Assembly: GCA_020161215.1 (NCBI GenBank) | Contig: JAIUOM010000009.1 | Span: 1-57,436, forward strand | Direction: 5' to 3' | DNA length: 57,436 nt | DNA from: Pseudomonadota bacterium | GTDB lineage: Bacteria > Pseudomonadota > Gammaproteobacteria > Burkholderiales > Burkholderiaceae_C | Part shown: positions 1,872 through 43,080 of the stretch, in pieces | How positions within the stretch are numbered: the first letter of the stretch is position 1 | How the letters are laid out: the number at the start of each line of letters is the position of its first letter | Notes under the pieces: model-generated | What the model saw: only the letters and a program-made list of their open reading frames with translations | Told to the model about the DNA's origin: nothing | Database searches by the model: none | Translations under genes and position numbers: made by a program

Positions 1872-1933
1872 TTCAAATTTGATAGCTGATGGCGATTATT
1901 CCACGCCGGCATCAGGCTGTTTTAGCTCTAAAA
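1872..1933 (+). repeat. Dispersed repeat TAGCT-N15-RYGCCG, copy A
   Basis: This is one of at least six copies in the window that share an A/T-rich left edge, GATAGCT or AATAGCT, exactly 15 bases, then ACGCCG or a close variant, then an A/T-rich right edge. It is most like copy B at 21593-21654 over its whole length. It lies in the 295-base gap between dbpA and the MBL-fold gene. Apart from the repeat, that gap shows only a possible TATAGT -10 box near 1950 and no convincing gene. Confidence 0.75.
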
Positions 1934-2104
1934 CTACTCTGGCGGTACGCTATAGTCGCCAGCTTGCCACGCACCGCCGTCGCATTGCAAGCAGGGCTCA
2001 ACGTCTCTCGGCGGACTCTGTCTGCGGGGAGAGCCCATTGCCGAGCGGGCCGTCGCCTCGACAGACGCGAGAATCAAGGGATTGCGTCAAACCCGTCAAA
2101 AACC

Positions 2105-2743
2105 ATGCTCCAGTACCGCAGCATCCCTGTTACGCCCTTCGCCCAGAACTGTTCCGTCGTCTGGTGCGACGCCACGCGCAAGGCCGCGGTCATCGACCCG
2201 GGCGGCGACCTGGCGCGCATCGAGGCGGTGGTGCGCGAGCTGGGGGTCGATCTGGAGCAGATCTGGCTCACCCACGCCCACATCGACCACGCCGGCGGCA
2301 CGGCCGAGCTGAGCCAGCGGCTGGGGCTGCCCATCGTCGGCCCGCACCAGGACGACCAGTTCTGGATCGACGGCATTGCCGAGCAGGGGCGGATGTTCGG
2401 CTTTCCGCAGGTGGACGGGTTCACGCCCACGCGCTGGCTGAACGACGGCGACACGGTGCAGATCGGTGACTGCACGCTGAACGTGCGCCACTGCCCCGGC
2501 CACACACCGGGTCACGTGGTGTTTCACTCGCCCGAGGCGCAACGCGCCTTTGTGGGCGACGTGTTGTTCAACGGCAGCATCGGCCGCACCGATTTTCCGG
2601 GTGGCAACCATGCGCAGCTCATCAGCAGCATCCGCGAGCGCCTGTGGCCCATGGGCGACGACACGGTGTTCATCCCCGGCCACGGGCCGGAAAGCACGTT
2701 GGGCGAAGAGCGTCGGCACAACCCCTTCGTGCGTGACGCCTGA
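2105..2743 (+). CDS. MBL-fold metallo-hydrolase (glyoxalase II-like, YcbL type)
   Basis: The 212-residue protein has the metallo-beta-lactamase zinc signature THAHIDH (56-62), then HCPGHTPGH, FVGDVLF and GHGPES near the C-terminus, as in the short hydroxyacylglutathione-hydrolase-like proteins. The reading frame is open upstream to 1889, but MLQYRSIPVTPFAQNC matches the family N-terminus, so I start at ATG 2105. A thioester hydrolase role is inferred from the family; the substrate is unknown. It is a single gene with dispersed repeats on both sides. Confidence 0.85.
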   Translation: MLQYRSIPVTPFAQNCSVVWCDATRKAAVIDPGGDLARIEAVVRELGVDLEQIWLTHAHIDHAGGTAELSQRLGLPIVGPHQDDQFWIDGIAEQGRMFGFPQVDGFTPTRWLNDGDTVQIGDCTLNVRHCPGHTPGHVVFHSPEAQRAFVGDVLFNGSIGRTDFPGGNHAQLISSIRERLWPMGDDTVFIPGHGPESTLGEERRHNPFVRDA

Positions 2744-2751
2744 TACTAAAA

Positions 2752-2872
2752 GGCGTTCAAAAGCATCAAACCGTTCGCATTGAGCCCTTCGACGGGCTCA
2801 GGACAGGCTTGTCGAAACGCCGCGCCGGGCTTCGACAGGCTCAGCCAGAACGGTTCTTGTAATTTGAACGCC
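2752..2872. repeat. Structured dispersed repeat with TTCGAC/CTCAGG core, copy 1
   Basis: The element is bounded by perfect 10-bp inverted ends (GGCGTTCAAA at 2752-2761 and its complement at 2863-2872). It contains nested complementary pieces, including GAGCCCTTCGACGGGCTC and CCGTTC/GAACGG. A second, diverged copy lies at 35297-35405. Repeats with the TTCGAC-GGCTCAGG core are widespread in proteobacterial intergenic DNA. It carries no gene; the small open frames across it are by-products. Confidence 0.75.
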
Positions 2873-2907
2873 AATCGGTATGAAACCGCCCCGACGGGTG
2901 GGTGCGA

Positions 2908-2922
2908 TGTGAATGGATCACA
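2908..2922. promoter_or_regulatory. Possible Crp-type operator TGTGA-N5-TCACA
   Basis: TGTGA and TCACA are separated by ATGGA about 85 bases upstream of the LuxR-type gene that starts the regulator/Crp/cyclase series. The half-sites equal those of the E. coli CRP box, but the spacer is one base short (5 instead of 6). A Crp-type regulator with cyclic-nucleotide residues is encoded 800 bases downstream, so autoregulation is conceivable. This is a motif match only. Confidence 0.35.
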
Positions 2923-3005
2923 AAACCGGTGTGCATCCGTCACTGCGCGCCGTGACGCCGGTGCCTAGACTGCCTTGCAGGATCAACTCCGAGGAGCAGG
3001 CCGTC

Positions 3006-3707
3006 ATGAACACCGTAGCCACCCACCCGACCACCCGCAAGGTCGGCTTTGCGTTTCGCGCCCTGGAGGACGAACTGCAGCCCTCGCTGGCGCTGCGCCT
3101 GCTGGACGAGATCGACTATGGCTTGGTGCTGGTCAGCTCACGCGGCAGGGTGCTGCACGCCAACCACCTGGCGCGCCACGAATTGGCCATGGGGCGCTTG
3201 GTGTTCACCGGCGACGAGGGGACCATCGCCTGCCCTGACACCGAGCAAACCGAGCAGTTGCTGGCGGCCATCGAGGGTGCGGTGCATGGGCGCCGACGCC
3301 TGCTGTACCTGACGCACGAAGAGCACCGTCTGCCCGTCGCCGCGATACCGCTGAACCATGCCCTGGCAAGTCCGACCAGCTCGGTGCTGCTGGCCATGGC
3401 GCGCCAGCGCGTGGGCGACAACCTGACCCTGCAGATGTTTGCCCTGGAGCACAACCTGACGCCGACCGAGGAATCCGTGCTGCGGGCCTTGTGCGACGGG
3501 GACGAGGTGGACGAGATTGCCGCCCGCCACGGCGTCGCCGAATCGACCGTGCGCACTCAGGTGCGTGCCTTGCGCGACAAGACCGGAGCACGAGGCATCC
3601 GCCAGTTGGTGCAACGCGTGCTGAGCTTGCCGCCGGTGGTGCCGGCGTTGCGGGCCGGCGGCTTTGTCGGGCCACGCCCGTCCAGCAGCACCTACCACTT
3701 TGTATGA
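3006..3707 (+). CDS. LuxR-family transcriptional regulator with PAS-like N-terminus
   Basis: The 233-residue protein has an N-terminal sensor-like region (about 25-140, LLDEIDYGLVLVSSRGRVLHAN, PAS-like) and a C-terminal LuxR helix-turn-helix (LTPTEESVLRALCDGDEV...VAESTVRTQVRALRDKTG, about 150-205). It lacks a receiver domain and an autoinducer-binding domain. ATG 3006 follows GAGGAGCAG, a good ribosome-binding site. The stop lies 6 bases before the Crp-type gene, so the two are very likely co-transcribed. The signal is unknown. Confidence 0.82.
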   Translation: MNTVATHPTTRKVGFAFRALEDELQPSLALRLLDEIDYGLVLVSSRGRVLHANHLARHELAMGRLVFTGDEGTIACPDTEQTEQLLAAIEGAVHGRRRLLYLTHEEHRLPVAAIPLNHALASPTSSVLLAMARQRVGDNLTLQMFALEHNLTPTEESVLRALCDGDEVDEIAARHGVAESTVRTQVRALRDKTGARGIRQLVQRVLSLPPVVPALRAGGFVGPRPSSSTYHFV

Positions 3708-3713
3708 TGGGGG

Positions 3714-4403
3714 ATGCCCCCTTCTGAGCCCGGCTCGCGACCAGAACCCGCAGCGGCCTCCGCCGCGGTGTTGCCACCGGTGCCGACCAGTTCACCGCAC
3801 GTCTCGGCCCTGGCCAGCCATGGCGTGCAGCGGCGCTACCGGCGCGGCACGCTGATCATTCAAGAGGGCGAGTTCGGCGACACCCTGTACATCGTGCTGT
3901 CGGGGCGTTTGCGCGCCTTCTTGTCGGGAGACAACGGCAAGGAGCTGACTCTGGGCATGTACGGCCCGGGCGAGTACGTCGGTGAGATGTCGCTGGACGG
4001 GGGTCCGCGCTCGGCCAACGTGGAGGCCGACGAGACCACGGTGTGTGCGCTGGTTTCGCGCGCCGCACTGCTGGGCTACATCGCCGAGCAACCCGACTTC
4101 GCGCTGGAATTGATGGGCCGCTTGATCCGCCGAGCCCGTCTGGCGACAGACAACGCCCGCGGCGTGGCCTTGACCGACGTCTACGCACGCCTGACCGTTC
4201 TGCTGGACCGCCTGGCCGGACCGCCGGACGCGCAGGGCCAGCGCATGCTGTGTGAGCGCCTGACCCACCAGCAGATAGCCAGCCATCTGGCTTGCTCGCG
4301 CGAAATGGTGAGCCGTTTGCTGAAGGATCTTGGAACCGGCGGCTATACCGCGGTGCGCGAGCGGCGGCTGGTGCTGCTCAAGAGCTTGCCTGCCCGGTGG
4401 TAG
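3714..4403 (+). CDS. Crp/Fnr-family regulator with cyclic-nucleotide-binding residues
   Basis: The 229-residue protein has a cNMP-binding barrel (about 40-150) and a winged helix (about 178-225, LTHQQIASHLACSREMVSRL). The phosphate-binding cassette reads GEMSLDGGPRSA (90-101) and keeps the Glu (E91) and Arg-Ser (R99, S100) that bind cAMP in E. coli CRP. No FNR-type cysteines are present. The first 35 residues are Pro/Ala/Ser-rich and extra to the family. A cyclase-domain protein follows directly, so cAMP is a plausible ligand. Confidence 0.85.
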   Translation: MPPSEPGSRPEPAAASAAVLPPVPTSSPHVSALASHGVQRRYRRGTLIIQEGEFGDTLYIVLSGRLRAFLSGDNGKELTLGMYGPGEYVGEMSLDGGPRSANVEADETTVCALVSRAALLGYIAEQPDFALELMGRLIRRARLATDNARGVALTDVYARLTVLLDRLAGPPDAQGQRMLCERLTHQQIASHLACSREMVSRLLKDLGTGGYTAVRERRLVLLKSLPARW

Positions 4404-4550
4404 TGCGTCCCCCGGTCTGGGGATGACGGTGGGGGTAATTTAATGTAACTAGTGATGGGGCTCTGGCTTGCATAATGAAACATGCGCTGCCAAAGCCCAG
4501 CACTCCGCTGCACGCGCCCGGCGTTCTCCGGTTCGCGCGACTGACTGAGT

Positions 4551-7643: not shown

Positions 7644-7646
7644 CCG

Positions 7647-8153
7647 TCAGGACGAACGCATGCGCGCGGCAGCTTCTTTGGACTGCATGGGCAGGGAGAG
7701 CACCAGGTAGTCGACTTCCAGGTAGTGCACGGGCCGCCCTTTGGGCGTGATGAGCACGGGGCTTTCCTGAACCTTCTGGCCTTCCATGTCGTGCGAGGTG
7801 AAGTACACCGGCAGCACACTCGCCGCGCCAAAATTCTCGAGGATGGCGTTGACGATGGCTTGGTTGCCGTTTTCGCCAGTGCGATTGGAGGGGTGCTTGG
7901 CCAGCGCCGCGATCAGGGTCAGCCAGCGCTGCTTGACCACGTTGTTGGAGTACATCAGGTTCAATGCGCGGACACTCTGCTCCAGGGACCGGCCGGGCTT
8001 GAAAATGCCGAATTCCTTCTGGATTTCGGTCATTTCCTCGATGCCGCCCAGCAGAGCCCGATCGCCGGAGGCTTGAGCCGGTGCAAAGCGCAGATTCAAT
8101 TGGCTGAGCATGTCCGGAATGAAGATATCGGCGTTGCCCATGAAGTAACCCAT
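7647..8153 (-). CDS. Conserved-looking protein of unknown function
   Basis: The 168-residue soluble protein has no signal peptide or membrane segment and no motif I recognise. The start ATG 8153 is supported by a strong GAGGAGAGGG ribosome-binding site. It is the last gene of a minus-strand series (M48 protease, methyltransferase, this gene) and meets the cyclase gene tail to tail with only 3 bases between. The sequence is mixed alpha/beta in character, ending LEVDYLVLSLPMQSKEAAAR. I offer no function. Confidence 0.75.
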   Translation of the reverse strand: MGYFMGNADIFIPDMLSQLNLRFAPAQASGDRALLGGIEEMTEIQKEFGIFKPGRSLEQSVRALNLMYSNNVVKQRWLTLIAALAKHPSNRTGENGNQAIVNAILENFGAASVLPVYFTSHDMEGQKVQESPVLITPKGRPVHYLEVDYLVLSLPMQSKEAAARMRSS

Positions 8154-20740: not shown

Positions 20741-21574
20741 TCAGAACCGCTCCTGCGCACCCAGGTAGCGCCACTGCCCGGCCGGCAGCTGGCCCAGGGT
20801 GATGCGGCCGATACGGATGCGCTTCAGGCCCGTCACCGTCAGGCCCACGGCCTCGCACATGCGGCGGATCTGGCGTTTTTTGCCTTCGTGCAGCACGAAG
20901 CGCAATTGCTCGGGGTTTTGCCAGTCCACCTGCGCCGGCTTCAGCGCCTGGCCGTCCAGCGCCAGGCCATGGCGCAGCCGCGCCAGCTGGGCGACGGGGA
21001 AGGCGGCCTGCACGTTCTGCTGCACCTCGCCGTAGGCCACGCGCACCAGGTATTCCTTGTCGACCTGCGAGTCCTCGCCGATCAACTGGCGCGCCACGCG
21101 GCCGTCTTGTGTCAGCACCAGCAGGCCCACCGAATCGATGTCCAGCCGCCCCGCCGGCGCCAGCCCGCGCAGTTGCGTGGGCGCAAAGCGCGTGCGGCTG
21201 GCGTCGCCGCGCCAGTGGCTGCGGCTGTTGATCAGCGTCACGGCGGGCTGGTGACCGTCCTCGGCCTGGCCGCTGACGTAGCCCATGGGCTTGTGCAGCA
21301 AGATGGTCACGCGCTGGGCCTGGGCGGCGTCGGCCTGGCGGTCCACGCTGACCTGGTCTTGCGGGCCGACCTTGAGCCCCATCGGCGCGATCTGCCCGTT
21401 CACCCGCACCCAGCCGCGCTCGATCCACTCGTCGGCTTCGCGGCGCGAACACAGCCCCAGGTCGGCCAGGCGCTTGTTCAGGCGCACGCCGACGGCTTCC
21501 GCGGCCGCCGAGGCGGCGCCGGGGAGGGCGTCCTGCGGCCGCGGCGCGCGACGAAAACGGGGTTGGTCGGTCAT
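20741..21574 (-). CDS. rluF: 23S rRNA pseudouridine synthase, RluF-like
   Basis: The 277-residue protein has an S4 RNA-binding domain (about 30-75, RLNKRLADLGLCSRREADEWI) and an RsuA/RluB/E/F catalytic domain with the nucleophile D145 in GRLDIDSVGLLVL. The C-terminal HEGKKRQIRRMCEAVGLTV and LGQLPAGQWRYL resemble RluF, which modifies U2604 of 23S rRNA, more than RluB. Subfamily assignment by eye is moderate. It is the first gene of the minus-strand run that continues with htpG. Confidence 0.82.
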   Translation of the reverse strand: MTDQPRFRRAPRPQDALPGAASAAAEAVGVRLNKRLADLGLCSRREADEWIERGWVRVNGQIAPMGLKVGPQDQVSVDRQADAAQAQRVTILLHKPMGYVSGQAEDGHQPAVTLINSRSHWRGDASRTRFAPTQLRGLAPAGRLDIDSVGLLVLTQDGRVARQLIGEDSQVDKEYLVRVAYGEVQQNVQAAFPVAQLARLRHGLALDGQALKPAQVDWQNPEQLRFVLHEGKKRQIRRMCEAVGLTVTGLKRIRIGRITLGQLPAGQWRYLGAQERF

Positions 21575-21592
21575 GGCAGGATTATGAAATAG

Positions 21593-21654
21593 TTCAAAAA
21601 TGATAGCTGATCTGGCTTATTGGGCGCCGACCAATGGCAGATTTTGCTCAAAAT
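21593..21654 (+). repeat. Dispersed repeat TAGCT-N15-RYGCCG, copy B
   Basis: This copy fills the gap between the Crp/Fnr gene and rluF. It aligns with copy A over about 60 bases, sharing TTCAAA, TGATAGCTGAT, TTATT, GCCG and TTTTGCTC-like segments. TAGCT and GCGCCG are again separated by exactly 15 bases. Confidence 0.75.
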
Positions 21655-21660
21655 ACCGGT

Positions 21661-22377
21661 TCAGAAGCGCCGGCTGCGCAGCGCCGCCACGTCCAGGATG
21701 CGCAGGCCGCCGTACTCGATGCGCACCACGCCCTGGGCGCTGAGCGCGCGCAGCGCCTCGTTCACGCGCTGGCGCGACAGGCCCACCAGGTAGGCCAACT
21801 CTTGCTGGGTGATGCGCAGCACCTCCCCGACACCGGGAAACAGCACCGGATTGACCAGCGTCGCCAGGTTGCGCGCCACGCGCTGTTCCGGGCTGGGTTG
21901 GCGGTCGGCCTCCAGGGCGCTGATGAACTGGGCGATGCGCTCGTTGAGGTGGTTCATCACGAAGCGGTTGAAGCCGATGGAATGGTCCAGCAGCCAGTGG
22001 AAGGTGTCCACCGGCAGCCCGGCCACCGTGCTGCGCCGCAGCGCCGCGATGCTGTAGCGGTAGGGCTCGCGCTTGAGCGCCGTGCCCTCGCCGAACCAGC
22101 CACCGGAAGTCAGGCCCGAATAGGTGATGGACTGGCCTTCGGGGGTTTCCGCGCTCATCTTCAGCAGGCCGTCCAGCACCCCGAACCAGTAGGTCGGCGC
22201 CCGGCCGATGCGGCAAATCACGTCGCCGGGCTCGGCATCGCCCACGCGGAGCACTTGCACGGCCCGTTCGTACTCGGCCGGCAGCAGCACGCGCAGCCAC
22301 GGGATCCCGGTCAACTCCTCGCGCGTGGCGGGCCGGCGCCGCTGGTGCAGGGCGGAATGGGGCGGGTGATGGACCAT
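21661..22377 (-). CDS. Crp/Fnr-family regulator of the adjacent transport cluster
   Basis: The 238-residue protein has a cNMP-like barrel (about 30-150) and a C-terminal winged helix (ITQQELAYLVGLSRQRVNEAL, about 188-208). In the phosphate cassette region it reads GEGTALKREPYRYSI (96-110), lacking the Arg-Ser pair, so cAMP binding is unlikely. No FNR cysteines are visible. It diverges from the ABC transporter cluster that starts at 22517, which suggests local control by an unknown ligand. Confidence 0.82.
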   Translation of the reverse strand: MVHHPPHSALHQRRRPATREELTGIPWLRVLLPAEYERAVQVLRVGDAEPGDVICRIGRAPTYWFGVLDGLLKMSAETPEGQSITYSGLTSGGWFGEGTALKREPYRYSIAALRRSTVAGLPVDTFHWLLDHSIGFNRFVMNHLNERIAQFISALEADRQPSPEQRVARNLATLVNPVLFPGVGEVLRITQQELAYLVGLSRQRVNEALRALSAQGVVRIEYGGLRILDVAALRSRRF

Positions 22378-26589: not shown

Positions 26590-27519
26590 ATGGCCTTTTT
26601 TCTCGAAACCCTCCTCGGCGGCCTGATGACGGGCATGCTGTATTCGCTGGTGGCGCTCGGCTTCGTGCTGATCTTCAAGGCCTCCGGCGTGTTCAACTTC
26701 GCGCAGGGCGCCATGGTGCTGTTCGCCGCCCTGGCGATGGCGCGTTTTTCCGAATGGATTCCCGGCTGGCTGGGCCTGGACAGCAAGGTGCTGGCCAACG
26801 TGCTGGCCTTCATCGTGGCCGGCGCGCTGATGTTCGTGGTGGCCTGGCTGATCGAGTTCCTGGTGCTGCGCCACCTGGTCAACCAGGAAGGCGCCACCTT
26901 GCTGATGGCCACCCTGGGCATCACCTACTTTCTGGAAGGCGTGGGCCAGTCGCTGTTCGGCAGCGACATCTACAAGATCGACATCGGCATGCCCAAGGAC
27001 CCGATGTTCCTGCTGGAGGGCATGTTCCAGGGCGGCGTACTGGTCAACCAGGAAGACCTGATCGCCGCGCTGATCGCCGCCGGCCTGGTGGCGGGGCTGT
27101 CGCTGTTCTTCCAGAAGACCAAGACCGGACGCGCCCTGCGCGCGGTGGCCGATGACCACCAGGCCGCGCAGTCCATCGGCATTCCGCTCTCGCGCATCTG
27201 GGTCATCGTCTGGACGGTGGCCGGCGTGGTGGCCCTGGTGGCCGGGATGATCTGGGGCAGCAAGCTGGGCGTGCAGTTCTCGCTGACCACGGTGGCGCTG
27301 CGCGCGCTGCCGGTGGTGATCCTGGGGGGGCTGACCAGCGTGCCCGGCGCCATCATCGGCGGGCTGATCATCGGCGTGGGCGAGAAGCTGTCCGAGGTGT
27401 ACCTCGGGCCCTTTGTCGGCGGTGGCATCGAGATCTGGTTTGCCTACGTGCTGGCGCTGGTGTTCCTGCTGTTCCGGCCGCAAGGCCTGTTCGGCGAAAA
27501 AATTATCGACCGTGTCTGA
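26590..27519 (+). CDS. ABC transporter permease, LivH type
   Basis: The 309-residue inner-membrane protein has about eight hydrophobic segments and LivH landmarks such as GFVLIFKASGVFNFAQGAM, TGRALRAVADDHQAAQSIGI (the cytoplasmic coupling loop) and GGLTSVPGAIIGG. It forms the channel with the LivM-type permease encoded downstream. A dispersed repeat (copy C) separates the two permease genes. Confidence 0.93.
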   Translation: MAFFLETLLGGLMTGMLYSLVALGFVLIFKASGVFNFAQGAMVLFAALAMARFSEWIPGWLGLDSKVLANVLAFIVAGALMFVVAWLIEFLVLRHLVNQEGATLLMATLGITYFLEGVGQSLFGSDIYKIDIGMPKDPMFLLEGMFQGGVLVNQEDLIAALIAAGLVAGLSLFFQKTKTGRALRAVADDHQAAQSIGIPLSRIWVIVWTVAGVVALVAGMIWGSKLGVQFSLTTVALRALPVVILGGLTSVPGAIIGGLIIGVGEKLSEVYLGPFVGGGIEIWFAYVLALVFLLFRPQGLFGEKIIDRV

Positions 27520-27586: not shown

Positions 27587-28663
27587 ATGTTTTACCGAGA
27601 AAACGGCCAGTTCAAGACCAGCTACCAAGCCGACCAGCAGATTTTCCCCATCGCGCAGGACCGCTGGGCGGTGCTGCTGCTGCTGGCCTTCGCGTTCCTG
27701 GTGGTGCCGTTTATTGCCAGCGAGTACCTGTTCTTTTCGATCCTGATCCCCTTCCTCATCATGGCGCTGGCCGCGCTGGGGGTGAATGTGCTGGTCGGCT
27801 ACTGCGGTCAGATCACGCTGGGCTCGGGCGCCTTCATGGCCGTGGGTGCCTACGGCGCCTACAACTTCTTCGTGCGCTTTCCGGGCATGCCGCTGGTGCC
27901 GGCCGTCCTGTTGGGCGGGCTGTGCGCGACCGCGTTCGGCGTGCTGTTCGGCCTGCCCAGCCTGCGCGTCAAGGGCTTGTACCTGGCGGTGGCTACGCTG
28001 GCCGCGCAGTTCTTCTCGGACTGGATGTTCCTGCGTATCAAGTGGCTGACCAACGACTCGGCGTCGGGTTCGGTGTCGGTGGCCAACCTGCAGGTGTTCG
28101 GCCTGCCGATCCAGAGCCCGGAAGCCAAGTACCTGTTCTGCCTGGCCTTCCTGGTGGTCATGGCGCTGCTGGTCAAGAACCTGGTGCGCAGCGCCATCGG
28201 CCGCGAGTGGATGGCGATCCGCGACATGGACGTGGCCGCCGCCGTGATCGGCATCCGCCCGATGTACGCCAAGCTCACGGCCTTTGCCGTCAGCAGCTTC
28301 ATCGTCGGCGTGGCCGGCGCGCTGTGGGCTTTTGTCTACCTGGGCGCCTGGGAGCCGAGCGCCTTCAACGTCGATCTGTCCTTCAAGCTGCTGTTCATGG
28401 TGATCATCGGCGGCCTGGGCTCGGTGATGGGCAGCATGTTCGGCGCCGCCTTCATCGTCGTGCTGCCGATCTTCCTGAACCAGTTCCTGCCCTGGCTGGG
28501 CGGCTTGTTCGGCATGAGCTTTTCCACCGCCACCGCCTCGCACGTTGAGTTGATGATCTTCGGCGCGCTGATCGTGTGGTTCCTGATCGTCGAGCCGCAC
28601 GGCCTGGCCAAGCTGTGGTCGGTGGGCAAACAGAAGTTGCGTTTGTGGCCGTTCCCGCATTGA
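27587..28663 (+). CDS. ABC transporter permease, LivM type
   Basis: The 358-residue membrane protein has LivM landmarks: ALGVNVLVGYCGQITLGSGAFMAVGAY, LRVKGLYLAVATLAAQFF and REWMAIRDMDVAAAVIGI. About nine hydrophobic segments follow a hydrophilic N-terminus of some 25 residues. It pairs with the LivH-type permease. The second binding-protein gene follows after a 171-base gap that carries a repeat. Confidence 0.93.
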   Translation: MFYRENGQFKTSYQADQQIFPIAQDRWAVLLLLAFAFLVVPFIASEYLFFSILIPFLIMALAALGVNVLVGYCGQITLGSGAFMAVGAYGAYNFFVRFPGMPLVPAVLLGGLCATAFGVLFGLPSLRVKGLYLAVATLAAQFFSDWMFLRIKWLTNDSASGSVSVANLQVFGLPIQSPEAKYLFCLAFLVVMALLVKNLVRSAIGREWMAIRDMDVAAAVIGIRPMYAKLTAFAVSSFIVGVAGALWAFVYLGAWEPSAFNVDLSFKLLFMVIIGGLGSVMGSMFGAAFIVVLPIFLNQFLPWLGGLFGMSFSTATASHVELMIFGALIVWFLIVEPHGLAKLWSVGKQKLRLWPFPH

Positions 28664-28674: not shown

Positions 28675-28785
28675 CCCCCTGAGTCGCTGACGCGCCTTCC
28701 CCCCTCTCGTACCGGAGGGGGGACAACGCCGGTGGGCGGGCCTAGCCCTTCCACGGCGTTCGCTGGACTGGTCTGCTCCGCGACC
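28675..28785 (+). repeat. GC-rich dispersed repeat with CCCCCCTC hairpin, copy 1
   Basis: This stretch runs from CCCCCTGAGTCGC to CTGCTCCGCG and contains the stem CCCCCCTC/GAGGGGGG. A second copy with the same order of blocks lies at 40853-40965. It sits between the LivM-type permease and the second binding-protein gene and has no T run, so it is not a classical terminator. Confidence 0.75.
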
Positions 28786-28834
28786 GTTTGAGTTCTCGTT
28801 TTTCTCGTCGCTTCAACCACCAAAGGAGACTTGC

Positions 28835-30278: not shown

Positions 30279-31097
30279 ATGAGCACTGACGCATCCGCCA
30301 AAACCATCCTCACCGTCAACGGCATCGAGGTCATCTACAACCACGTGATCCTGGTGCTCAAGGGCGTGTCGCTGACGGTGCCCGAAGGCGGCATCGTGGC
30401 CATCCTGGGCGGCAACGGGGCGGGCAAGACCACCACCTTGCGCGCCGTCTCCAACCTGCTCAAGGGCGAGCGCGGCGAGGTCACCAAGGGCTCCATCGAG
30501 TTGCGCGGCGAGCGCATCGAGAACCTGAGCCCGGCCGATCTGGTCAAGCGTGGCGTGGTGCAGGTGATGGAAGGGCGCCACTGCTTCGCGCACCTGACCA
30601 TCGAGGAAAACCTGCTCACCGGCTCCTACACCCGCAAGGACAAGGCCGAGATCGCGCGCAACCTCGACAAGGTCTACACCTATTTTCCGCGCCTGAAAAC
30701 GCGCCGAAGCTCGCAGGCGGCCTACACCTCCGGCGGCGAGCAGCAGATGTGCGCCATTGGCCGCGCGCTGATGTGCAACCCCAACATGGTGCTGCTGGAC
30801 GAGCCCTCGATGGGCCTGGCGCCGCAGATCGTGGAAGAGGTGTTTAACATCGTCAAGGACTTGAACAGCAAGGAGAAAGTCACCTTCCTGCTGGCCGAGC
30901 AGAACACCAACATGGCCCTGAAGTACGCCGACTACGGCTACATCATGGAAAGCGGCCGCGTGGTGATGGACGGCCAGGCCAGCGACCTGGCCAGCAACGA
31001 GGACGTCAAGGAGTTCTACCTGGGCGTGGGCGGTGGCGAGCGCAAGAGCTTCAAGGACGTGAAGAGCTACAAGCGGCGCAAACGTTGGCTGGCCTGA
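30279..31097 (+). CDS. ABC transporter ATP-binding protein, LivF type
   Basis: The 272-residue ATPase has Walker A GGNGAGKTT, signature TSGGEQQMCAIGRAL and Walker B MVLLDEPSMGLAP, the LivF/BraG class. The C-terminus has a Lys/Arg-rich tail (KSFKDVKSYKRRKRWLA) longer than usual. The frame is open further upstream, but MSTDASAKTILTVNGIEVIYNHV is the family start. It pairs with the LivG-type ATPase encoded five genes earlier. Confidence 0.92.
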   Translation: MSTDASAKTILTVNGIEVIYNHVILVLKGVSLTVPEGGIVAILGGNGAGKTTTLRAVSNLLKGERGEVTKGSIELRGERIENLSPADLVKRGVVQVMEGRHCFAHLTIEENLLTGSYTRKDKAEIARNLDKVYTYFPRLKTRRSSQAAYTSGGEQQMCAIGRALMCNPNMVLLDEPSMGLAPQIVEEVFNIVKDLNSKEKVTFLLAEQNTNMALKYADYGYIMESGRVVMDGQASDLASNEDVKEFYLGVGGGERKSFKDVKSYKRRKRWLA

Positions 31098-31219: not shown

Positions 31220-32470
31220 ATGAGTGAATTCTTCGATGCCCTGGAAACGCGCGCACCGGCAGAGCGCGAAGCGGCGCTGATGGCGGCACTGCCCGGGCAG
31301 ATCGCGCGGGCCCAGGCCGCCAGCGCCGCCATGGGCGAGATCCTGGCCGGGGTGGCCGCGTCGGCGATCGACTCGCGCGCCGCGCTGGCGCGCCTGCCGG
31401 TCACGCGCAAGGGCGAGTTGCTGGCGCGCCAGCAGGCCAGCCGCGCCGCCGGGCGCGATGCCTTTGGCGGCTTCTCGGCCCTGCGCTACGGCCCGGCCAT
31501 GCCGCACCTGTTTGCCAGCCCCGGCCCCATCTACGAACCCGAGGGCACGGCGCGCGACTATTGGCGCGCCGCGCGCGCGCTGTACGCGGCTGGCTTTCGG
31601 GCCGGCGATTTGGCGCACAACGCCTTCAGCTACCACATGACGCCCGGCGCCTTCATCATGGAAAGCGGCGCGCACGCCATTGGCTGCACGGTGTTTCCCG
31701 CCGGCACCGGCCAGACCGAGCAGCAGCTGCAGGCCATCGCCGAGCTGAAACCCCAGGCCTACATCGGCACGCCCAGCTTTCTGCGCATCCTGCTCGAGAA
31801 GGCGCACGAGGCCGGCGGCGACATCGCCAGCTTCACCAAGGGCCTGGTCGGGGGCGAAGCCTTTCCGCCCAGCCTGCGCGACTGGTTCGCCGAGCGAGGC
31901 ATGGCCGTCTACCAGAGCTACGCCACGGCGGACGTGGGCCTGATCGCCTACGAAACCGCCTCGCGCGAGGGCCTGGTGCTGGACGAGCAGGTCGTCGTCG
32001 AGATCGTGCGCCCCGGCACCGGGGACCCGGTGGCCGAGGGCGAGGTGGGCGAGGTGGTGGTCACCGTGCTGAACCCGGACTACCCGCTGGTGCGTTTTGG
32101 CACCGGCGATCTGTCGGCCGTGCTGCCCGGCACCTGCCCCACGGGCCGCACCAACACCCGCATCAAGGGCTGGCTGGGCCGCGCCGACCAGACCACCAAG
32201 ATCCGCGGCATGTTCGTGCATCCCGGCCAGGTGGCCGAGATCGTCAAGCGCTTTCCTGAAATCGCGCGCGCGCGCCTGGTGGTCAGCGGCGAGATGGCCA
32301 ACGACCAGCTGACGCTGCGCGTCGAGGCCCCCGCCGCGCCCGATCTTGGCGCACGCGTGGCCGAGGTGGTGCGCGATGTGACCAAGCTGCGCGGCGACGT
32401 CGAGGTGGTCGCGCCAGGCACCCTGCCCAACGACGGCAAGGTGATCGAGGACGCCCGCAGCTACAAATAA
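31220..32470 (+). CDS. Phenylacetate-CoA ligase family (PaaK-like) protein
   Basis: The 416-residue adenylate-forming enzyme is close to PaaK in length and order of motifs: QSYATADVGLIAYE in place of the usual YGxTE region, VRFGTGDLS and the C-terminal DQTTKIRGMFVHPGQVAEI. It lacks a clear SGTTG P-loop in the N-terminal half, as some PaaK-like proteins do. It would convert an aromatic or related acid to its CoA thioester. Its place after the importer suggests activation on entry; the substrate is not proven. Confidence 0.82.
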   Translation: MSEFFDALETRAPAEREAALMAALPGQIARAQAASAAMGEILAGVAASAIDSRAALARLPVTRKGELLARQQASRAAGRDAFGGFSALRYGPAMPHLFASPGPIYEPEGTARDYWRAARALYAAGFRAGDLAHNAFSYHMTPGAFIMESGAHAIGCTVFPAGTGQTEQQLQAIAELKPQAYIGTPSFLRILLEKAHEAGGDIASFTKGLVGGEAFPPSLRDWFAERGMAVYQSYATADVGLIAYETASREGLVLDEQVVVEIVRPGTGDPVAEGEVGEVVVTVLNPDYPLVRFGTGDLSAVLPGTCPTGRTNTRIKGWLGRADQTTKIRGMFVHPGQVAEIVKRFPEIARARLVVSGEMANDQLTLRVEAPAAPDLGARVAEVVRDVTKLRGDVEVVAPGTLPNDGKVIEDARSYK

Positions 32471-35112: not shown

Positions 35113-35296
35113 TCGCACCCCCGCGGCGTTTGGCACGGCGGTGGCTCATGCGCCGCGCGCTACCGGAGAGGTGCCTCCGGGGGCCGCGGAGCAGACCATG
35201 CGAAAAGCCGCTGCGCCCGGCCGCCAGACGCGGCCGATTTGTCCCCCAGTGGGCGCGCGCCGCAGGCGTAACGGGGGCGTCCGTCTCCCACCCAAA

Positions 35297-35405
35297 GGCG
35301 TTCAAAAATACCAAACCGTTCGGGTTGAACCCTTCGATGGGCTCAGGGCAGATTTGTCGAAACGCTAAGCCGGGCTGCGACAAGCTCCGCCTGACCGGTT
35401 TTATA
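35297..35405. repeat. Structured dispersed repeat with TTCGAC/CTCAGG core, copy 2
   Basis: It shares with copy 1 (2752-2872) the left end GGCGTTCAAA, then ACCAAACCGTTCG, CCCTTCGA-GGGCTCAGG, TTGTCGAAACGC and GCCGGGC. The right inverted end is missing or diverged. The rest of the 35113-35411 gap is GC-rich and holds nothing I can name. Confidence 0.7.
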
Positions 35406-35949: not shown

Positions 35950-38313
35950 ATGAAAATCGTCTGCATCGGCGGCGGCCCGGCCGGCCTGTACTTCGCGCTG
36001 CTCATGAAGCAGCACAACCCGGCCCACGACATCACGGTGGTCGAGCGCAACCAGCCTTACGACACCTTCGGCTGGGGCGTGGTGTTCTCCGACGCCACCA
36101 TGGACCACATGCGCCAATGGGACACCGTCACCGCCGGTGAGATCCAGCAGGCCTTCAACCACTGGGACGACATCGAGCTGCATTTCAAGGACGAGGTGAT
36201 TCGCTCCGGCGGCCACGGCTTCGTCGGCATCGGGCGCAAGAAATTGCTCAACATCCTGCAGGCGCGCTGCGAGCAGCTGGGTGTGAAACTGGTGTTCGAA
36301 ACCGACGTCGATTCCGACGCCGAATTCCCCGACGCCGACCTGATCCTCGCCAGCGACGGGATCAACTCCAAGATTCGGACCCTGCACCAAGATCGGTTTC
36401 AGCCCGAGCTGATCGTGCGCCCCAACCGCTACATCTGGCTGGGCACGCACAAGCAGTACGACGCGTTCACCTTTTTGTTCGAAAAGACCGAGCACGGCTG
36501 GTTTCAGGCCCACATCTACAAATTCGACGAGAACACCACCACCTTCATCGTCGAGTGCCCCGAGCAGGTGTGGCTGGCGCACGGACTGGACAAGGCCGAT
36601 CAGCAGCAGTCCATCGCCTTTTGCGAGCAGCTGTTCGCGGGCAACCTGCAGGGCGCCAAGCTGATGTCCAACGCGCGGCATCTGCGCGGTTCGGCCTGGC
36701 TGAACTTCACGCGGGTGAAGTGCGAGCACTGGTGGCTGAAGAACGCCCACGGCAGCCACGTGGTGCTGATGGGCGACGCGGTGCACACGGCGCACTTTGC
36801 CATCGGCTCGGGCACCAAGCTGGCGTTGGAGGACGCGATCGAGCTGACGCGCCTGTTCCAGGAGATGGGCGACGCGCCCGAGACGGTGGGCGAAGTGCTC
36901 ACGCGCTACCAGGAACTGCGCAGCGTGGAAGCGCTCAAGCTGCAGAACGCGGCCTGGAACGCCATGGAGTGGTTCGAGGTGTGCGGCCAGCGCTACTGCG
37001 ACACGCTGGAGCCGCCGCAGTTCATGTACAGCATGCTGACGCGCAGCCAGCGCATCAGCCACGAGAACCTGCGCCTGCGCGACGCCGCCTGGCTGGACGA
37101 CTACGAGCGCTGGTTTGCCGGCGTCGGCGCCACCGCGCAGACCGGCGCGGTCGATACGCCACCGCCCATGCTCACGCCCTATACCGTACGCGGGCTTCGG
37201 CTGAAAAACCGCATCGTCGTGTCGCCCATGGCCCAGTACAAGGCGCGCGACGGCGTGGTCGGCGACTGGCACCTGGCGCACCTGGGCGCGCGCGCCGTGG
37301 GCGGCGCCGCCCTGGTGATGGTGGAGATGACTTCGCCCACCCTGGCCCAGGGCTACGACGGGCGCATCACCCCTGGCTGCCCGGCACTGGAAAACGACGC
37401 CCAGCAGGCGGCCTTTGCGCGCATCGTCGATTTCGTGCACCAGCAGAGCGACGCCAAGATCGGCCTGCAGCTGGGCCACAGCGGTCCCAAGGGCTCGACC
37501 CAGCTGGGCTGGCAAGCCATGGACGAACCGCTGGCCAGCGGCAACTGGCCCTTGGTGGCCGCCAGCGCGCTGCCCTATGGCGCGCAGAACCAGACCCCCA
37601 GTGCGCTCACGCGGGCCGACATGGACGTGTTGCGCGACGCCTTTGTCGCCGCCACCCGCCGCGCCGACGCGGCCGGTTTCGACTGGCTGGAGCTGCACTG
37701 CGCGCACGGCTACCTGCTGTCGTCCTTCATCAGCCCGCTGACCAATGTGCGCGGCGACGACTACGGTGGCCCACTGGAAAAGCGCTGCCGCTACCCGCTG
37801 GAGGTGTTTGGCGCCATGCGCGCCGCCTGGCCGGCCGGCAAGCCCATGAGCGTGCGCCTCTCCGCGCACGACTGGGCGCCCGGCGGCATCACCCCGGCCG
37901 ACGCGCTGGAGGTCGCCAGGCTGTTCAAGGCCGCCGGCTGCGACGTGATCGACGTGTCCTCGGGTCAAACCACGCGCGCCGCCCGCCCGGTCTACGGGCG
38001 CATGTACCAGACGCCGTTTGCCGACCGCATCCGCAACGAAGCCGGCATCGCCACCATGGCCGTGGGCGCCATCAGCGAGGCCGACCACGCCAACAGCATC
38101 ATCGCCGCCGGCCGCGCCGACCTGTGCGCCGTGGGCCGCCCGCACCTGGCCAACCCGGCCTGGACCCTGCACGAGGCCGCCAAGCTGCACAGCCAGGCTG
38201 TGACCTGGCCGCTGCCTTACCTGAGCGGGCGCGACCAGCTGTACCGCGAAGTCGAGCGCCAGCAGGCTCAGCAGGCGTTGCTGGCAACGGCGCCATCGGC
38301 CGCGGCCGTGTAG
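35950..38313 (+). CDS. 2-aminobenzoyl-CoA monooxygenase/reductase-like fusion
   Basis: The 787-residue flavoprotein joins two enzymes. Residues 1 to about 390 are an FAD monooxygenase ([33 protein letters not shown]). Residues from about 400 are an Old Yellow Enzyme-type reductase ([56 protein letters not shown]). This arrangement is that of Azoarcus evansii 2-aminobenzoyl-CoA monooxygenase/reductase, which hydroxylates and then reduces the ring of anthraniloyl-CoA. Salicylyl-CoA 5-hydroxylase is the main alternative, but it lacks the second half. It leads a tight operon with a matching CoA ligase. Confidence 0.87.
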
Positions 38314-38316
38314 GCC

Positions 38317-38781
38317 ATGGACCTGGAAGCCCGCGCCCACGCCGAGCATCCCGACGAGCTGCGCCTGTGGCTGCGCCTGCTGACCTGCACCCAGCTCATC
38401 GAGCGGCAGATCCGCACCGACCTGCGCGAGCAGTGGAGCACCACCTTGCCGCGCTTCGACCTGATGGCGCAGCTGGAGCGCGCGCCCGAGGGCATGCGCA
38501 TGAACGAGCTCTCGCGCCGCCTGATGGTGACCGGGGGCAATGTCACCGGCATCACCGACCAGTTGCAGTCGGAAGGCCTGGTCGAGCGCGCCGAGGTCGA
38601 GGGCGACCGGCGCGTGTACCTGGTGCGCCTGACGCCCAAGGGCCGGCGCCAGTTCAACGCCATGGCGCGTGCCCACGAGGCCTGGATCGTCGAAGCCTTT
38701 CAGGCCCTCGACGCACGCGAAATCGACACCTTGCACCGCCTGCTGGGCAAGGTGAAGGCACATTTTCAGGAACACGCATGA
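38317..38781 (+). CDS. MarR-family regulator of the anthranilate operon
   Basis: The 154-residue winged-helix protein has recognition region [22 protein letters not shown] and wing [18 protein letters not shown]. It begins 3 bases after the monooxygenase/reductase stop and overlaps the hydratase start by four bases (ATGA). MarR proteins in CoA-dependent aromatic pathways usually respond to the aryl-CoA, so repression relieved by 2-aminobenzoyl-CoA is a reasonable guess. An A/T-rich candidate operator lies just before the operon (35918-35936). Confidence 0.87.
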
Positions 38782-39635
38782 AGCACTACATCGGACCGTC
38801 CAACCCCATGCGGGCGCAGTACACGCCTCGCGCTGCGCACCAGGCGGCGCACTTTGCCTGGCACTGCGATGACGACGGCGTGGCCACCGTGACCCTGAAC
38901 CGGCCCGAGCGCAAGAACCCGCTCACCTTCGACAGCTACGCCGAGCTGCGCGATCTGTTCCACGGCCTGCGTCAGGCCACCGACGTGAAGGTGGTGGTGC
39001 TGGCGGGCGAGGGTGGCAATTTCTGCTCGGGCGGCGACGTGCACGACATCATCGGCCCGTTGACCAAGATGACGATGCCGGAGCTGCTGGAGTTCACCCG
39101 CATGACGGGCGACCTGGTCAAGGCCATGCGCGGCTGCCCGCAGCCCATCGTCGGCGCCATCGACGGCGTGTGCGCCGGTGCCGGCGCCATGATGGCCCTG
39201 GCCTGCGACATGCGCTACGGCAGCGCCGCCACCAAGACCGCCTTTCTGTTCACCCGCGTCGGCCTGGCCGGCGCCGACATGGGCGCCTGCGCGCTGCTGC
39301 CGCGCGTGATCGGCCAGGGCCGGGCCAGCGAGCTGTTGTTCACCGGCCGCGCCATGACGGCCCAGGAAGGCCTGGCCTGGGGCTTCTTCAATGCCTTGCA
39401 CGACAGCGCCGAGCTGCTGCCGAACGCCCTGGCCCTGGCGCGCGAGCTGGCCAGCGGCCCGGGTTTTGCCCAGGGCATGACCAAGACCATGCTCAGCCAG
39501 GAATGGGCCATGACCATCGAGCAGGCCATCGAGGCCGAGGCCCAGGCCCAGGCCATCTGCATGCAGACGCAGGACTTCCGCCGCGCCTACGAGGCCTTTG
39601 CCGCCAAGAAGAAACCTGTGTTTGGGGGCGACTGA
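38778..39635 (+). CDS. Enoyl-CoA hydratase/isomerase family protein
   Basis: The 285-residue crotonase-fold protein has [17 protein letters not shown], the oxyanion-hole segment [12 protein letters not shown] and [23 protein letters not shown]. The usual first catalytic Glu position in helix 4 (after [12 protein letters not shown]) appears altered, as in several aromatic-pathway members. It would hydrate an enoyl-CoA, or act otherwise on the ring, after the monooxygenase/reductase step. The start ATG overlaps the MarR stop. Confidence 0.87.
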
Positions 39636-39636
39636 C

Positions 39637-40852
<1,216 letters not shown>

Positions 40853-40860
<8 letters not shown>

Positions 40861-40965
40861 GTCGCCTGCGGCGCCTTCCCCCCTCTCTCCTCGGGAGGGG
40901 GGACGACGCCAGTGGCCGGCGCAGGTCCGGCCACGGCGTTCGCTGGCCTGGCCTGCTCCGCGGCC
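40853..40965 (+). repeat. GC-rich dispersed repeat with CCCCCCTC hairpin, copy 2
   Basis: The block order equals that of copy 1 (28675-28785): CCCCCTGAGTCGC, CCTTCCCCCCTCTC, GAGGGGGGAC, CACGGCGTTCGCTGG, CTGCTCCGCG. It starts inside the last codons of the acyl-CoA dehydrogenase and supplies its TGA stop. It fills the gap to the CoA ligase. Confidence 0.75.
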
Positions 40966-40999
40966 TTTCGAAGTTCATCCAAATCCGGGAGACATAGGT

Positions 41000-42625
41000 A
41001 TGACCGCACCCAGCGCCCAGACCGACCGCTTCGTGCACGACCGCCTGCCGCCACGGGAGCAATGGCCCGAGCTGCGCTACGACCTGCCGGAGCTGCTCAT
41101 CCCCGATCAGATCAATCTGGTGGCGGAGCTGCTCGACGGCGCCGCCGCGCGCGGCTGGGCCGACCGCCCGCTGCTGCGCTCGCCGCAGACCGCCTTCACC
41201 TATGCGCAGGTGCGCGAGCGCGTCGACCGCATCGCCAATTACCTGATCCACGAGCTGAAGCTGGAGCCCGGCAACCGCGTGCTGCTGCGCGGCGGCAACT
41301 CCATCGGGCTGGCCTTGTGCTGGCTGGCGGTGGTCAAGGCCGGTCTGGTGGCCGTGGCCACCATGCCGCTGTTTCGTGCCACCGAGCTCGGCAAGGTGAT
41401 CGACCGGGTGCAACCGGTGGTCGCCCTCTGCGACGCCCAACTGCTGGACGAGCTGGACAAGGCCAGCGCCCAGCATCCCGGCGTGCTGCGCCAGGTGCTG
41501 CGCTTTGGCGCCGCCGATGATCCGCAAGACCTGGGCGCCCTGGTGGCCCAGCAGCCCGGCCACTTCACGGCCTGCCCCACGGCGGCCGACGACATCGCGC
41601 TGCTGGCCTTCACCAGCGGCACCACCGGGCAGCCCAAGGTGGCGGTGCACAGCCACCGCGACGTGCTGGCCGCCTGCGCGGCCTGGCCGCGCCACGTGCT
41701 GCGGGCCACGCCGCAAGACGTGGTCACCGGTTCGCCGCCGCTGGCTTTCACCTTCGGCCTGGGCGGCTTGCTGCTGTTTCCCATGGCCGCGGGGGCCAGC
41801 ATCTACTACCCCGACGGGCCGTACAAGCCCGAGACCATGGTGCGGCAGATGCGCACGGCCGGCGTCACCATCTGCTACACCGCGCCCACCTTCTACCGGC
41901 AGATGGCGCCGCACGCGAAGGCGATCGGCATCCCCAGCCTGCGCATCAGCGCCAGCGCCGGCGAGGCCCTGCCCGACGCCACGCGCCAGCTCTGGAAGGA
42001 CGCCACCGGCATCGAGATGCTGGACGGCATCGGCGCCACCGAGATGTTCCACATCTTCATTTCCTCGGCCGGCGAGCAGGTGCGCCGCGGCGCCATCGGC
42101 CAGGTGGTGCCCGGCTACCAGGCCAAGGTGGTGGACGACGACGGGCTGGAAGTGCCGCGCGGCACCATCGGCAAGCTGGCCGTCATCGGCCCCACCGGCT
42201 GCCGCTACATGGACGACGAACGCCAGAGCAGCTACGTGCGGCACGGCTGGAACCACCCGGGCGATGCCTTCACGCAGGACGAGGATGGCTACTTTCATTA
42301 CCAGGCGCGCGACGACGATATGATCATCACCGCCGGCTACAACGTCGGTGGCCCCGAGGTGGAAGACTGCCTGCTGACCCACCCGGCGGTGGCCGAATGT
42401 GGCGTGATCGGCAAGCCCGACGAGGCGCGCGGCATGCTCATCCAGGCCTTCGTGGTGCTGAAACCCGGTCAGACCGGCGACGCGGCCCTGGTCAAGGCCC
42501 TGCAGGAGCACGTCAAACAAGCCATCGCGCCCTACAAATACCCGCGCGAAATCGAATTCGTCACCGCGCTGCCGCGCACCGAGACCGGCAAGCTGCAGCG
42601 CTTCAAGCTGAGGCAGCTGGCATGA
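41000..42625 (+). CDS. abmG: 2-aminobenzoate-CoA ligase-like (benzoate-CoA ligase family)
   Basis: The 541-residue adenylate-forming enzyme has LLAFTSGTTGQPKVAVHSH, the benzoate-CoA ligase-type DGIGATEMFHIFIS and the C-terminal hinge with YITAGYN-like IITAGYNVGGPEVED and catalytic Lys in TETGKLQRF. The N-terminus RLPPREQWPELRYDLPEL is typical of the 2-aminobenzoate ligase branch. It starts the pathway by making anthraniloyl-CoA. ATG 41000 follows CGGGAGA; the frame is open upstream into the repeat. It overlaps the RidA gene by four bases. Confidence 0.87.
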   Translation: MTAPSAQTDRFVHDRLPPREQWPELRYDLPELLIPDQINLVAELLDGAAARGWADRPLLRSPQTAFTYAQVRERVDRIANYLIHELKLEPGNRVLLRGGNSIGLALCWLAVVKAGLVAVATMPLFRATELGKVIDRVQPVVALCDAQLLDELDKASAQHPGVLRQVLRFGAADDPQDLGALVAQQPGHFTACPTAADDIALLAFTSGTTGQPKVAVHSHRDVLAACAAWPRHVLRATPQDVVTGSPPLAFTFGLGGLLLFPMAAGASIYYPDGPYKPETMVRQMRTAGVTICYTAPTFYRQMAPHAKAIGIPSLRISASAGEALPDATRQLWKDATGIEMLDGIGATEMFHIFISSAGEQVRRGAIGQVVPGYQAKVVDDDGLEVPRGTIGKLAVIGPTGCRYMDDERQSSYVRHGWNHPGDAFTQDEDGYFHYQARDDDMIITAGYNVGGPEVEDCLLTHPAVAECGVIGKPDEARGMLIQAFVVLKPGQTGDAALVKALQEHVKQAIAPYKYPREIEFVTALPRTETGKLQRFKLRQLA

Positions 42626-43020
42626 GAAAAGTGTTGCAACCCCCCGACTGGGCCGCGCCCAAGGGCTACGCCAACGGCATCCTGGCGCGCGGTGCCCTGC
42701 TCTTCGTTGGCGGCCAGATCGGCTGGAACGCCCAACAGCAGTTCGACAGCGACGACTTCATCGCCCAGTGCCGTCAGGCCTTGATCAACGTGGTGGCGGT
42801 GCTGCAAGCCGGCGGCGCCGGCCCCGAGCACATGGTGCGCATGACCTGGTACGTGGTCAGCCGGGACGAATACAACGCGCGCCTGAAGGAGCTGGGCGCG
42901 GTGTACCGCGAGGTGATTGGCCGCAACTTCCCGGCCATGACCTGCGTGGAAGTGTCGGCGCTGATGGAGGCGCGCGCCCAGATCGAGATCGAGGTGACGG
43001 CGGTGCTGCCGGACACCTGA
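42622..43020 (+). CDS. RidA/YjgF family (enamine/imine deaminase) protein
   Basis: The 132-residue protein has the RidA fold, with FVGGQIGWNAQQQF, RMTWYVVSRDEYNARL and FPAMTCVEVSAL. In true RidA the conserved Arg of the last segment binds carboxylate; here it reads AMTCVEVSALMEARAQIEIE, so the match is to a pathway-specific branch. RidA proteins hydrolyse reactive enamines and imines. Reduced 2-aminobenzoyl-CoA products are enamines, so it may release the amino group as ammonia. It is coupled to the ligase by ATGA. Confidence 0.83.
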   Translation: MRKVLQPPDWAAPKGYANGILARGALLFVGGQIGWNAQQQFDSDDFIAQCRQALINVVAVLQAGGAGPEHMVRMTWYVVSRDEYNARLKELGAVYREVIGRNFPAMTCVEVSALMEARAQIEIEVTAVLPDT

Positions 43021-43028
43021 TTTGCTGC

Positions 43029-43080
43029 GTTTTTAATAGCTAAAAACTAAGATTTGACGCCGATATTCGGCGGTTTTCTT
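43029..43080 (+). repeat. Dispersed repeat TAGCT-N15-RYGCCG, copy E
   Basis: TTTTTAATAGCT is followed by 15 bases and ACGCCG. In this copy the ACGCCG part forms one arm of the operon terminator (43058-43080), so the repeat seems to act as, or has become, a transcription stop. Confidence 0.6.
43058..43080 (+). terminator. Terminator of the anthranilate operon
   Basis: CGCCGA-TAT-TCGGCG is followed by GTTTTCTTT. The stem of six pairs and the T-rich tail sit 38 bases after the RidA gene stop and face the minus-strand BCCT gene. Confidence 0.75.

What the first reader, a model, noticed from the sequence alone, without database searches (positions are those of the whole stretch)
1872..43080. Dispersed repeat family TAGCT-N15-RYGCCG with at least six copies
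Copies at 1872, 21593, 27528, 31138 (inverted), 40094 and 43029 all have TAGCT followed by exactly 15 bases and ACGCCG or a one- or two-base variant, with A/T-rich edges in otherwise GC-rich DNA. Several sit inside operons. This is far from chance and suggests a small mobile or structured RNA element.
Basis: partly seen in the sequence, partly recalled or inferred. Interest (0 to 1): 0.7.

Follow-up and report, generated by a model that had tools for sequence, protein, structure and literature searches.

The report
Dispersed DNA repeat with private dialect
The six look-alike stretches belong to a family of several hundred copies of a roughly 65-letter DNA element; copies tend to stay at the same places in related bacteria, but in this species the middle of nearly all examined copies has been rewritten to a shared new version, which looks more like a genome-wide set of recognition sites than an RNA.

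Summary
Six exact TAGCT-N15-RYGCCG sites lie in the window (0.16 expected) and 93 of a slightly longer motif in the genome (0 in the control). They are parts of a sharp-edged, ~62-68 bp element with AT-rich edges, extrapolated to ~670 copies per genome. About three quarters are intergenic; the rest lie in called genes, in either orientation (one in the window's acyl-CoA dehydrogenase). Genus-mates and other Comamonadaceae carry the same family with another core. At colinear sites the element mostly stays in place (19 of 23 in relative G013, 17 in the same orientation; element-free gaps 1 of 18), yet 114 of 118 own copies fit the own core best and 197 of 202 G013 copies the G013 core. Edges and flanks keep site-specific similarity; the core does not. 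No maintained stem was found, so 'structured RNA' is not supported. Mobility is plausible in origin, but no recent copying is seen in own copies. Best explanation: a mostly inherited set of double-stranded DNA recognition sites whose core evolves in concert; the reader protein is unknown. A RAYT-driven REP-like element and an uptake-signal-like system remain rivals. In passing: part of Pfam DUF1010 is the antisense translation of this element.

The parts
1866..1936 (+). element copy between dbpA-like RNA helicase gene 403-1809 (+) and metallo-beta-lactamase-fold gene 2105-2743 (+)
   Evidence: R1 57.1 bits; genes
21587..21657 (+). element copy between rRNA pseudouridine synthase gene 20741-21574 (-) and Crp-type regulator gene 21661-22377 (-), ending 4 bases from the stop of the latter
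   Evidence: R1 54.3 bits
27519..27587 (+). element copy that fills the gap between two Liv-type transporter permease genes, 26590-27519 (+) and 27587-28663 (+); holds the ribosome-binding-like AGGAAAACC before the ATG
   Evidence: R1 47.3 bits
31137..31206 (-). element copy between LivF-like gene 30279-31097 (+) and PaaK-like ligase gene 31220-32470 (+); same site and orientation in G003, G013, G025 with the relatives' core
   Evidence: R1 44.9 bits
40084..40154 (+). element copy inside the open frame of acyl-CoA dehydrogenase gene 39637-40860 (+), read in frame
   Evidence: R1 52.2 bits
43020..43081 (+). weakest copy, starting at the stop codon of a Rid-family gene 42622-43020 (+); next gene is a BCCT transporter 43136-44707 (-)
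   Evidence: R1 33.8 bits

Best explanation
A dispersed element of Comamonadaceae, ~62-68 bp, that spread long ago (some copies as in-frame inserts) and is now mostly inherited in place. It works as double-stranded DNA: a set of recognition sites with AT edges and a conserved AGCT, in which A-tracts are accepted on either strand, flanking a ~28-bp core that carries the specificity. The core is kept alike across the hundreds of sites of one genome by concerted evolution, i.e. selection for one DNA-binding protein and/or frequent short-tract conversion between copies. In the lineage of this genome the core changed from the relatives' TGCTNGCGCTTG..CAAGCGCTAG to NTCAGGATT..CGCCGGCCTA at nearly all examined sites, forming a private dialect. 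Shown: the family, its edges, positional orthology, dialect homogeneity, loss of site memory in the core, absence of a maintained stem within detection. Inferred: a protein reader, selection, the conversion process.
For: Sharp edges. Colinear sites: 19 of 23 own elements face a G013 element, 17 in the same orientation; reciprocal 20 of 31, 19 in the same orientation; own element-free gaps 1 of 18; random gene-internal points 0 of 82. Dialect: 114 of 118 own and 197 of 202 G013 copies fit their own profile best. Site memory: excess ortholog identity +0.117 to +0.173 in flanks, +0.137 and +0.070 in the edges, +0.018 and +0.008 in the core halves (23 pairs); between relatives that share a core, the core excess is also the smallest (0.045-0.087 against 0.207-0.314 in flanks, 23 pairs). 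No stem covariation. AA/TT replace each other with mixed steps depleted at -8..-4 and +36..+39. No near-identical own copies.
Against: No reader protein was identified. The information in the element is far more than a binding site at this density needs (inference). G013 does show an excess of near-identical pairs (20 of 37401 at 80% or more, about 4 simulated) and of long shared right-edge runs (20, about 7 simulated), so some recent copying may occur there. Core haplotypes are only slightly more shared than simulated (own 39 vs 30 with sd 9; G013 1358 vs 1049 with sd 173), so conversion is not directly seen. Neighbour-dependent mutation could also give the dinucleotide pattern. Over 12 relatives only 34 of 60 colinear places hold a same-orientation element, so sites are also gained or lost.
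Confidence: 0.5

Rival explanations
1. REP/REPIN-like non-autonomous element moved and homogenised in trans by a RAYT (REP-associated tyrosine transposase); the dialect follows the resident RAYT.
For: The own genome has a RAYT-type gene at G000:C137:6068-6904 (NCBIfam NF047646, 80.3 bits, cut-off 80) with an own-dialect element 5 bases beyond its 3' end; an element lies at the RAYT 3' end in 6 of 22 loci examined, one of them weak. Homologs in 23 of 29 genus genomes. Intergenic bias and avoidance of divergent gaps. The G013 consensus is an imperfect palindrome. Some near-identical pairs in G013.
Against: Palindrome absent in the own dialect and not co-varying in G013. A GTAG/CTAC tag is present in 16 of 112 own and 31 of 274 G013 copies at the left edge or right edge as CTAC (30 and 1), GTAG 5. 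Element-rich genomes G015, G016 and G020 lack a close RAYT homolog (none, 38%, 40%), while G004, G011, G012 and G028 have one (62-66%) and 0-1 canonical elements; G015 and G020 are incomplete. No recent own copies.
Confidence: 0.25
2. A DNA-uptake-signal-like system (DUS/USS kind): the motif is spread and kept by biased uptake, and dialects follow the uptake receptor.
For: Hundreds of sites, genome-specific dialects, copies inside genes and in both orientations, AT segments beside a core. The resemblance to DUS/USS is recalled.
Against: The unit is ~65 bp and partly arises as inserts of 30-51 nt, unlike 9-12 bp signals (recalled). Competence genes were not examined.
Confidence: 0.15
3. A transcribed structured RNA element or intrinsic terminator at gene ends.
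For: Many copies abut stop codons; T-runs are the commoner state on the right edge; copies are over-represented in convergent gaps (20 of 82 copies, 37 of 281 gaps).
Against: No consensus structure, no Rfam family at gathering score, no stem covariation, A-run and T-run interchange, 29 of 114 copies inside called genes in both orientations.
Confidence: 0.05

Closest known systems
REP / REPIN with RAYT
   Same: Short, abundant, mostly intergenic, avoids promoters; a RAYT-type gene is in the genome.
   Different: Longer single unit, no constant GTAG/CGTC tag, no maintained palindrome in the own dialect, copies diverse, about a quarter of examined copies inside genes.
Beta-proteobacterial repeat element BRE (PMC3110155)
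   Same: Dispersed repeat in Comamonadaceae and Bordetella, mostly intergenic, some copies in coding sequence.
   Different: BRE is ~75-91 bp, 69% GC and often in tandem (paper); this element is 35-46% GC in the window and single. The sequences were not compared letter by letter.
Rickettsia palindromic elements (RPE)
   Same: Repeat copies kept in frame inside unrelated genes.
   Different: RPEs are ~150 bp palindromes of Rickettsia (PMC10969869 passage); here most copies are intergenic and the core changes in concert.
DNA uptake sequences (DUS/USS), recalled
   Same: Many genome-wide sites with lineage dialects.
   Different: Much longer unit, partly inserted, no link to uptake shown.
Pfam PF06231 DUF1010
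   Same: About the first 22 of its 66 positions are the antisense translation of this element in the relatives' dialect.
   Different: Annotated as a protein; in the examined plasmid its tail reads through an attC-like site of an integron cassette.

Membership tests
REP/REPIN | palindromic, hairpin-forming unit | tested here: not met
   Own arms pair 0.28, as shuffled; G013 0.72, as shuffled.
REP/REPIN | GTAG or CGTC tag at one end | tested here: not met
   CTAC (GTAG read backwards) in the left edge in 16 of 112 own and 30 of 274 G013 copies; GTAG, CGTC and GACG 0-5 each. The tag as a definition is taken from the title and abstract start of PMC3733652.
REP/REPIN | linked RAYT gene | tested here: inconclusive
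   a RAYT is present in own, but co-distribution is weak.
MITE | terminal inverted repeats and target-site duplication | tested here: inconclusive
   Six colinear G013 sites without a same-orientation copy were aligned; none gives a clean duplication, one holds a relic.
structured RNA (Rfam families) | conserved secondary structure, match to a family model | tested here: not met
BRE (PMC3110155) | ~75-91 bp, GC about 69%, tandem arrays | tested here: not met
   35-46% GC for the six window copies, single copies; section 14 of the paper.
RPE-like protein-coding repeats | in-frame copies inside unrelated genes | tested here: met
   29 of 114 copies in called genes; two genes checked against shorter orthologs.
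RPE-like protein-coding repeats | ~150-bp palindrome of Rickettsia | tested here: not met
   62-68 bp unit, Comamonadaceae.
DUS/USS | preferential DNA uptake | not testable with these tools
   needs an uptake assay

The most novel reading that the evidence does not exclude
Comamonadaceae genomes carry hundreds to about a thousand chromosome-wide recognition elements whose core is continually rewritten in concert, by an unknown reader protein and/or templated exchange between short copies at fixed loci, so that a lineage can replace its whole site dialect while keeping site positions and edges. This genome has made such a switch: a strict own-dialect pattern that occurs 10 times in 0.7 Mb of own DNA has no hit in an 84,980-species collection, from which the own genome or a very near one may be left out.
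Probability: 0.35. Interest if true: 0.82.

Novelty: new variant of a known kind. Interest (0 to 1): 0.62.

Why it matters
Short bacterial repeats are usually seen either as hairpin transposon remnants or as short signal motifs. This family fits neither well: many site positions are old and shared, yet the core has been rewritten at nearly every examined site in one lineage. That makes concerted evolution of hundreds of dispersed short sites testable in culturable Comamonadaceae, points to an unknown genome-wide DNA reader, and shows a route by which repeats add peptide linkers to enzymes. It also suggests that part of a Pfam family (DUF1010), reported as a common integron cassette, is a translated DNA element.

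Tried and rejected

Literature: searches of the held PMC library showed me no paper that describes this element; listings were cut (20 of 577, 12 of 62) and other print was not searched. Papers: PMC3110155 abstract, passages and section 14; PMC3116915 abstract and outline; PMC2817692 one passage; PMC10969869 and PMC11616780 passages; PMC3733652 search listing and a term search without occurrences; others listings only. DUS/USS facts and the family placement of genera are recalled.

Weak points: the gene caller is my own and simple. Copies in L034-L052 were fetched because they hold the motif. Profiles score their own training copies well (hence reversed and simulated controls). Context counts use the best 114 of 124 matches. 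Column statistics use only copies with AT before AGC (112 own, 274 G013). Permutation tests have 17, 23 and 23 pairs, one per element, with unanchored or repeated ones dropped. In one search, 101 of 215 colinear pairs between relatives held a same-orientation element.
Full report
CHECK. Six sites in the window match TAGCT-N15-RYGCCG exactly; 0.16 are expected and none of 100 shuffles reached six. With two mismatches the motif is at chance (88 vs 79). The whole genome (G000, 4.52 Mb, 250 contigs; the window is contig C17) has 93 exact hits to TGATAGCT-N15-RYGCCG and none for the reversed pattern. Of 60 genomes searched with it, own included, 15 have a hit; the largest count outside own is 12.

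ANATOMY. Aligning 30 copies shows a unit bounded at about -14 and +54 around the T of TGATAGCT, with next to no information outside. A trained profile finds 112 copies at E below 1e-4 in 604 kb and none in reversed sequence. In 538 kb of the window plus 25 stretches there are 80 copies (74 found by the own profile, 6 only by the relatives' profile), which extrapolates to about 670 per genome (contigs not drawn at random). Own consensus: TGCTcCTaAaTTGATAGCTgctCAGGATtTaTcgACGCCGGCCtAtGGCcgATTTtgCtCaAA.

PLACE. Of the best 114 of 124 matches in 600 kb, 85 are intergenic, although called genes cover 90% of the DNA. Of the 82 with genes on both sides, 37 have their left end towards a gene start and right end towards a gene end, 20 lie between two gene ends, 19 the other way round, and 6 between two starts. 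Gaps of 50 bp or more in the same DNA are 183 tandem, 37 convergent and 61 divergent, so divergent gaps are avoided. The other 29 lie inside called genes, 15 opposite to and 14 along the gene.

INSIDE GENES. In the window's acyl-CoA dehydrogenase (39637-40860) the element is read in frame. Orthologs in G011 and G004 are 10 residues shorter there. Those in G013, G023, G009, G007 and G019 hold an insert with the relatives' core, and those in G003, G025, G017 and G016 have a loop of similar length whose core is degenerate or unclear. Solved homologs 5jsc and 5idu are 9 residues shorter. In a flavin-oxidoreductase fusion (ortholog of 35950-38313), G003, G023, G013 and G009 carry an element on the opposite strand and are 17 residues longer than own, G025, G019, G017 and G016; G011 and G004 are shorter still, and G007 is not covered.

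RELATIVES. Stretches of 12 genus-mates (381 kb, length recounted) hold 78 copies at E below 1e-3 with another core. G013 consensus: GCTATtaaTTTaATAGCTGCTtGCGCTTGaCaGgCAAGCGCtAGcGGCcatTTTGACttaAA, 196 copies at E below 1e-4 in 860 kb. The canonical core pattern (up to one mismatch) was searched in 100 genomes including own; 35 have a match. Own has 9. Fifteen genus-mates have 75-631 and the other 13 have 0-11. Among 31 genomes of other genera of the family, G031, G032, G062 and G074 have 93-331, the others 0-27. The 40 genomes of other families of the order have 0-1 each; the reversed control gives at most 2 in a genome. Named genomes with a longer canonical pattern (61 stretches, many from one Ottowia MAG) carry Ottowia, Acidovorax, Paenacidovorax, Simplicispira, Extensimonas, Comamonas or Comamonadaceae in the title, except one titled only Pseudomonadota bacterium. 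G003's contig length, 4008472, equals that of Ottowia beijingensis GCS-AN-3, so the genus is probably Ottowia (inference). A strict own-dialect pattern occurs 10 times in 0.7 Mb of own DNA and has no hit in the named species collection, from which the own genome or one very near may be left out.

SAME PLACES, OTHER WORDS. With 1.65 Mb of G013 in hand, 23 of 134 distinct own elements have both flanks colinear there; 19 of these places hold a G013 element, 17 in the same orientation. From the other side 31 G013 elements are colinear in own DNA, 20 occupied, 19 in the same orientation. Own element-free gaps: 18 of 182 colinear, 1 occupied. Random gene-internal points: 82 of 394 colinear, 0 occupied. 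Over all fetched relatives, including two that lack most elements, 34 of 60 colinear places hold a same-orientation element. Dialect is nearly uniform within a genome: 114 of 118 own and 197 of 202 G013 elements score best with their own profile.

MEMORY TEST. For 23 own-relative ortholog pairs, identity above that of non-ortholog pairs is +0.117 to +0.173 in flanks, +0.137 in the left edge and +0.070 in the right edge (P 0.01), but +0.018 and +0.008 in the two core halves (P 0.20 and 0.39) and +0.022 in the low-information core columns (P 0.20) (a first run with 17 pairs, agrees). In 23 pairs between relatives that share the canonical core, the excess is 0.207-0.314 in flanks, 0.227 and 0.156 in the edges, and 0.045-0.087 in the core, there significant. 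So the core turns over faster than its surroundings, and in the own lineage it has lost site memory within detection.

MECHANISM. Most likely a set of mostly inherited dsDNA recognition sites with concerted evolution of the core (0.5). Retained sites amid eroded flanks argue for selection or constant renewal (inference). A RAYT-driven REP-like element is the main rival (0.25): the own genome has a RAYT-type gene at G000:C137:6068-6904 with an element at its 3' end, but homologs and element numbers do not match well across 29 genomes.

SIDE RESULT. DUF1010 profile hits (E up to 0.01) number 15 in G013, none above Pfam's cut-off, 17 in G003, 18 in G010, 34 in G018 and 0 in own, with 150 candidates scored at most per genome. 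All 5 of the 15 G013 hits that fall in fetched DNA overlap an element on the opposite strand. In a Salmonella plasmid integron the annotated DUF1010 gene (L328:2851-3096, minus) consists of the element's antisense reading (2989-3048) followed by an attC-like site (2849-2908); 25 plasmid records match one G013 copy. A study of blaGES-5 integrons counts the DUF1010 cassette 42 of 195 times, as often as the commonest other (PMC11616780, passage). DUF1010 may therefore be, at least in part, a translated DNA element.

Noticed in passing
L328:2849-3096; G013 hits: About the first third of Pfam PF06231 (DUF1010) is the antisense translation of this element; in a plasmid integron the annotated gene runs from the element into an attC-like site.
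   Followed up: partly
L329:2362-4007 (plasmid pYKBP039): Six element copies about 320 bp apart between integron resistance genes; my simple attC pattern found no attC in this stretch.
   Followed up: partly
L330 and L331 (G010:C1:2174500-2182500 and 623000-631000): Clusters of elements and DUF1010-like readings near attC-like sites, perhaps chromosomal cassette arrays; no integrase was looked for.
   Followed up: partly
window 28714-28791 and 40894-40971: A GC-rich 78-bp direct repeat, 81% alike, in intergenic gaps; possibly of the BRE kind (PMC3110155), not compared.
   Followed up: no
window 2749-2855 and 35294-35400: A 107-bp repeat, 83% alike, with CTTCGAC/GTCGAAA arms; a second dispersed repeat type.
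   Followed up: no
window 49390-49418 and 133-157: Two weak partial matches to parts of the element (E 0.08 and 0.16), perhaps decayed copies.
   Followed up: no
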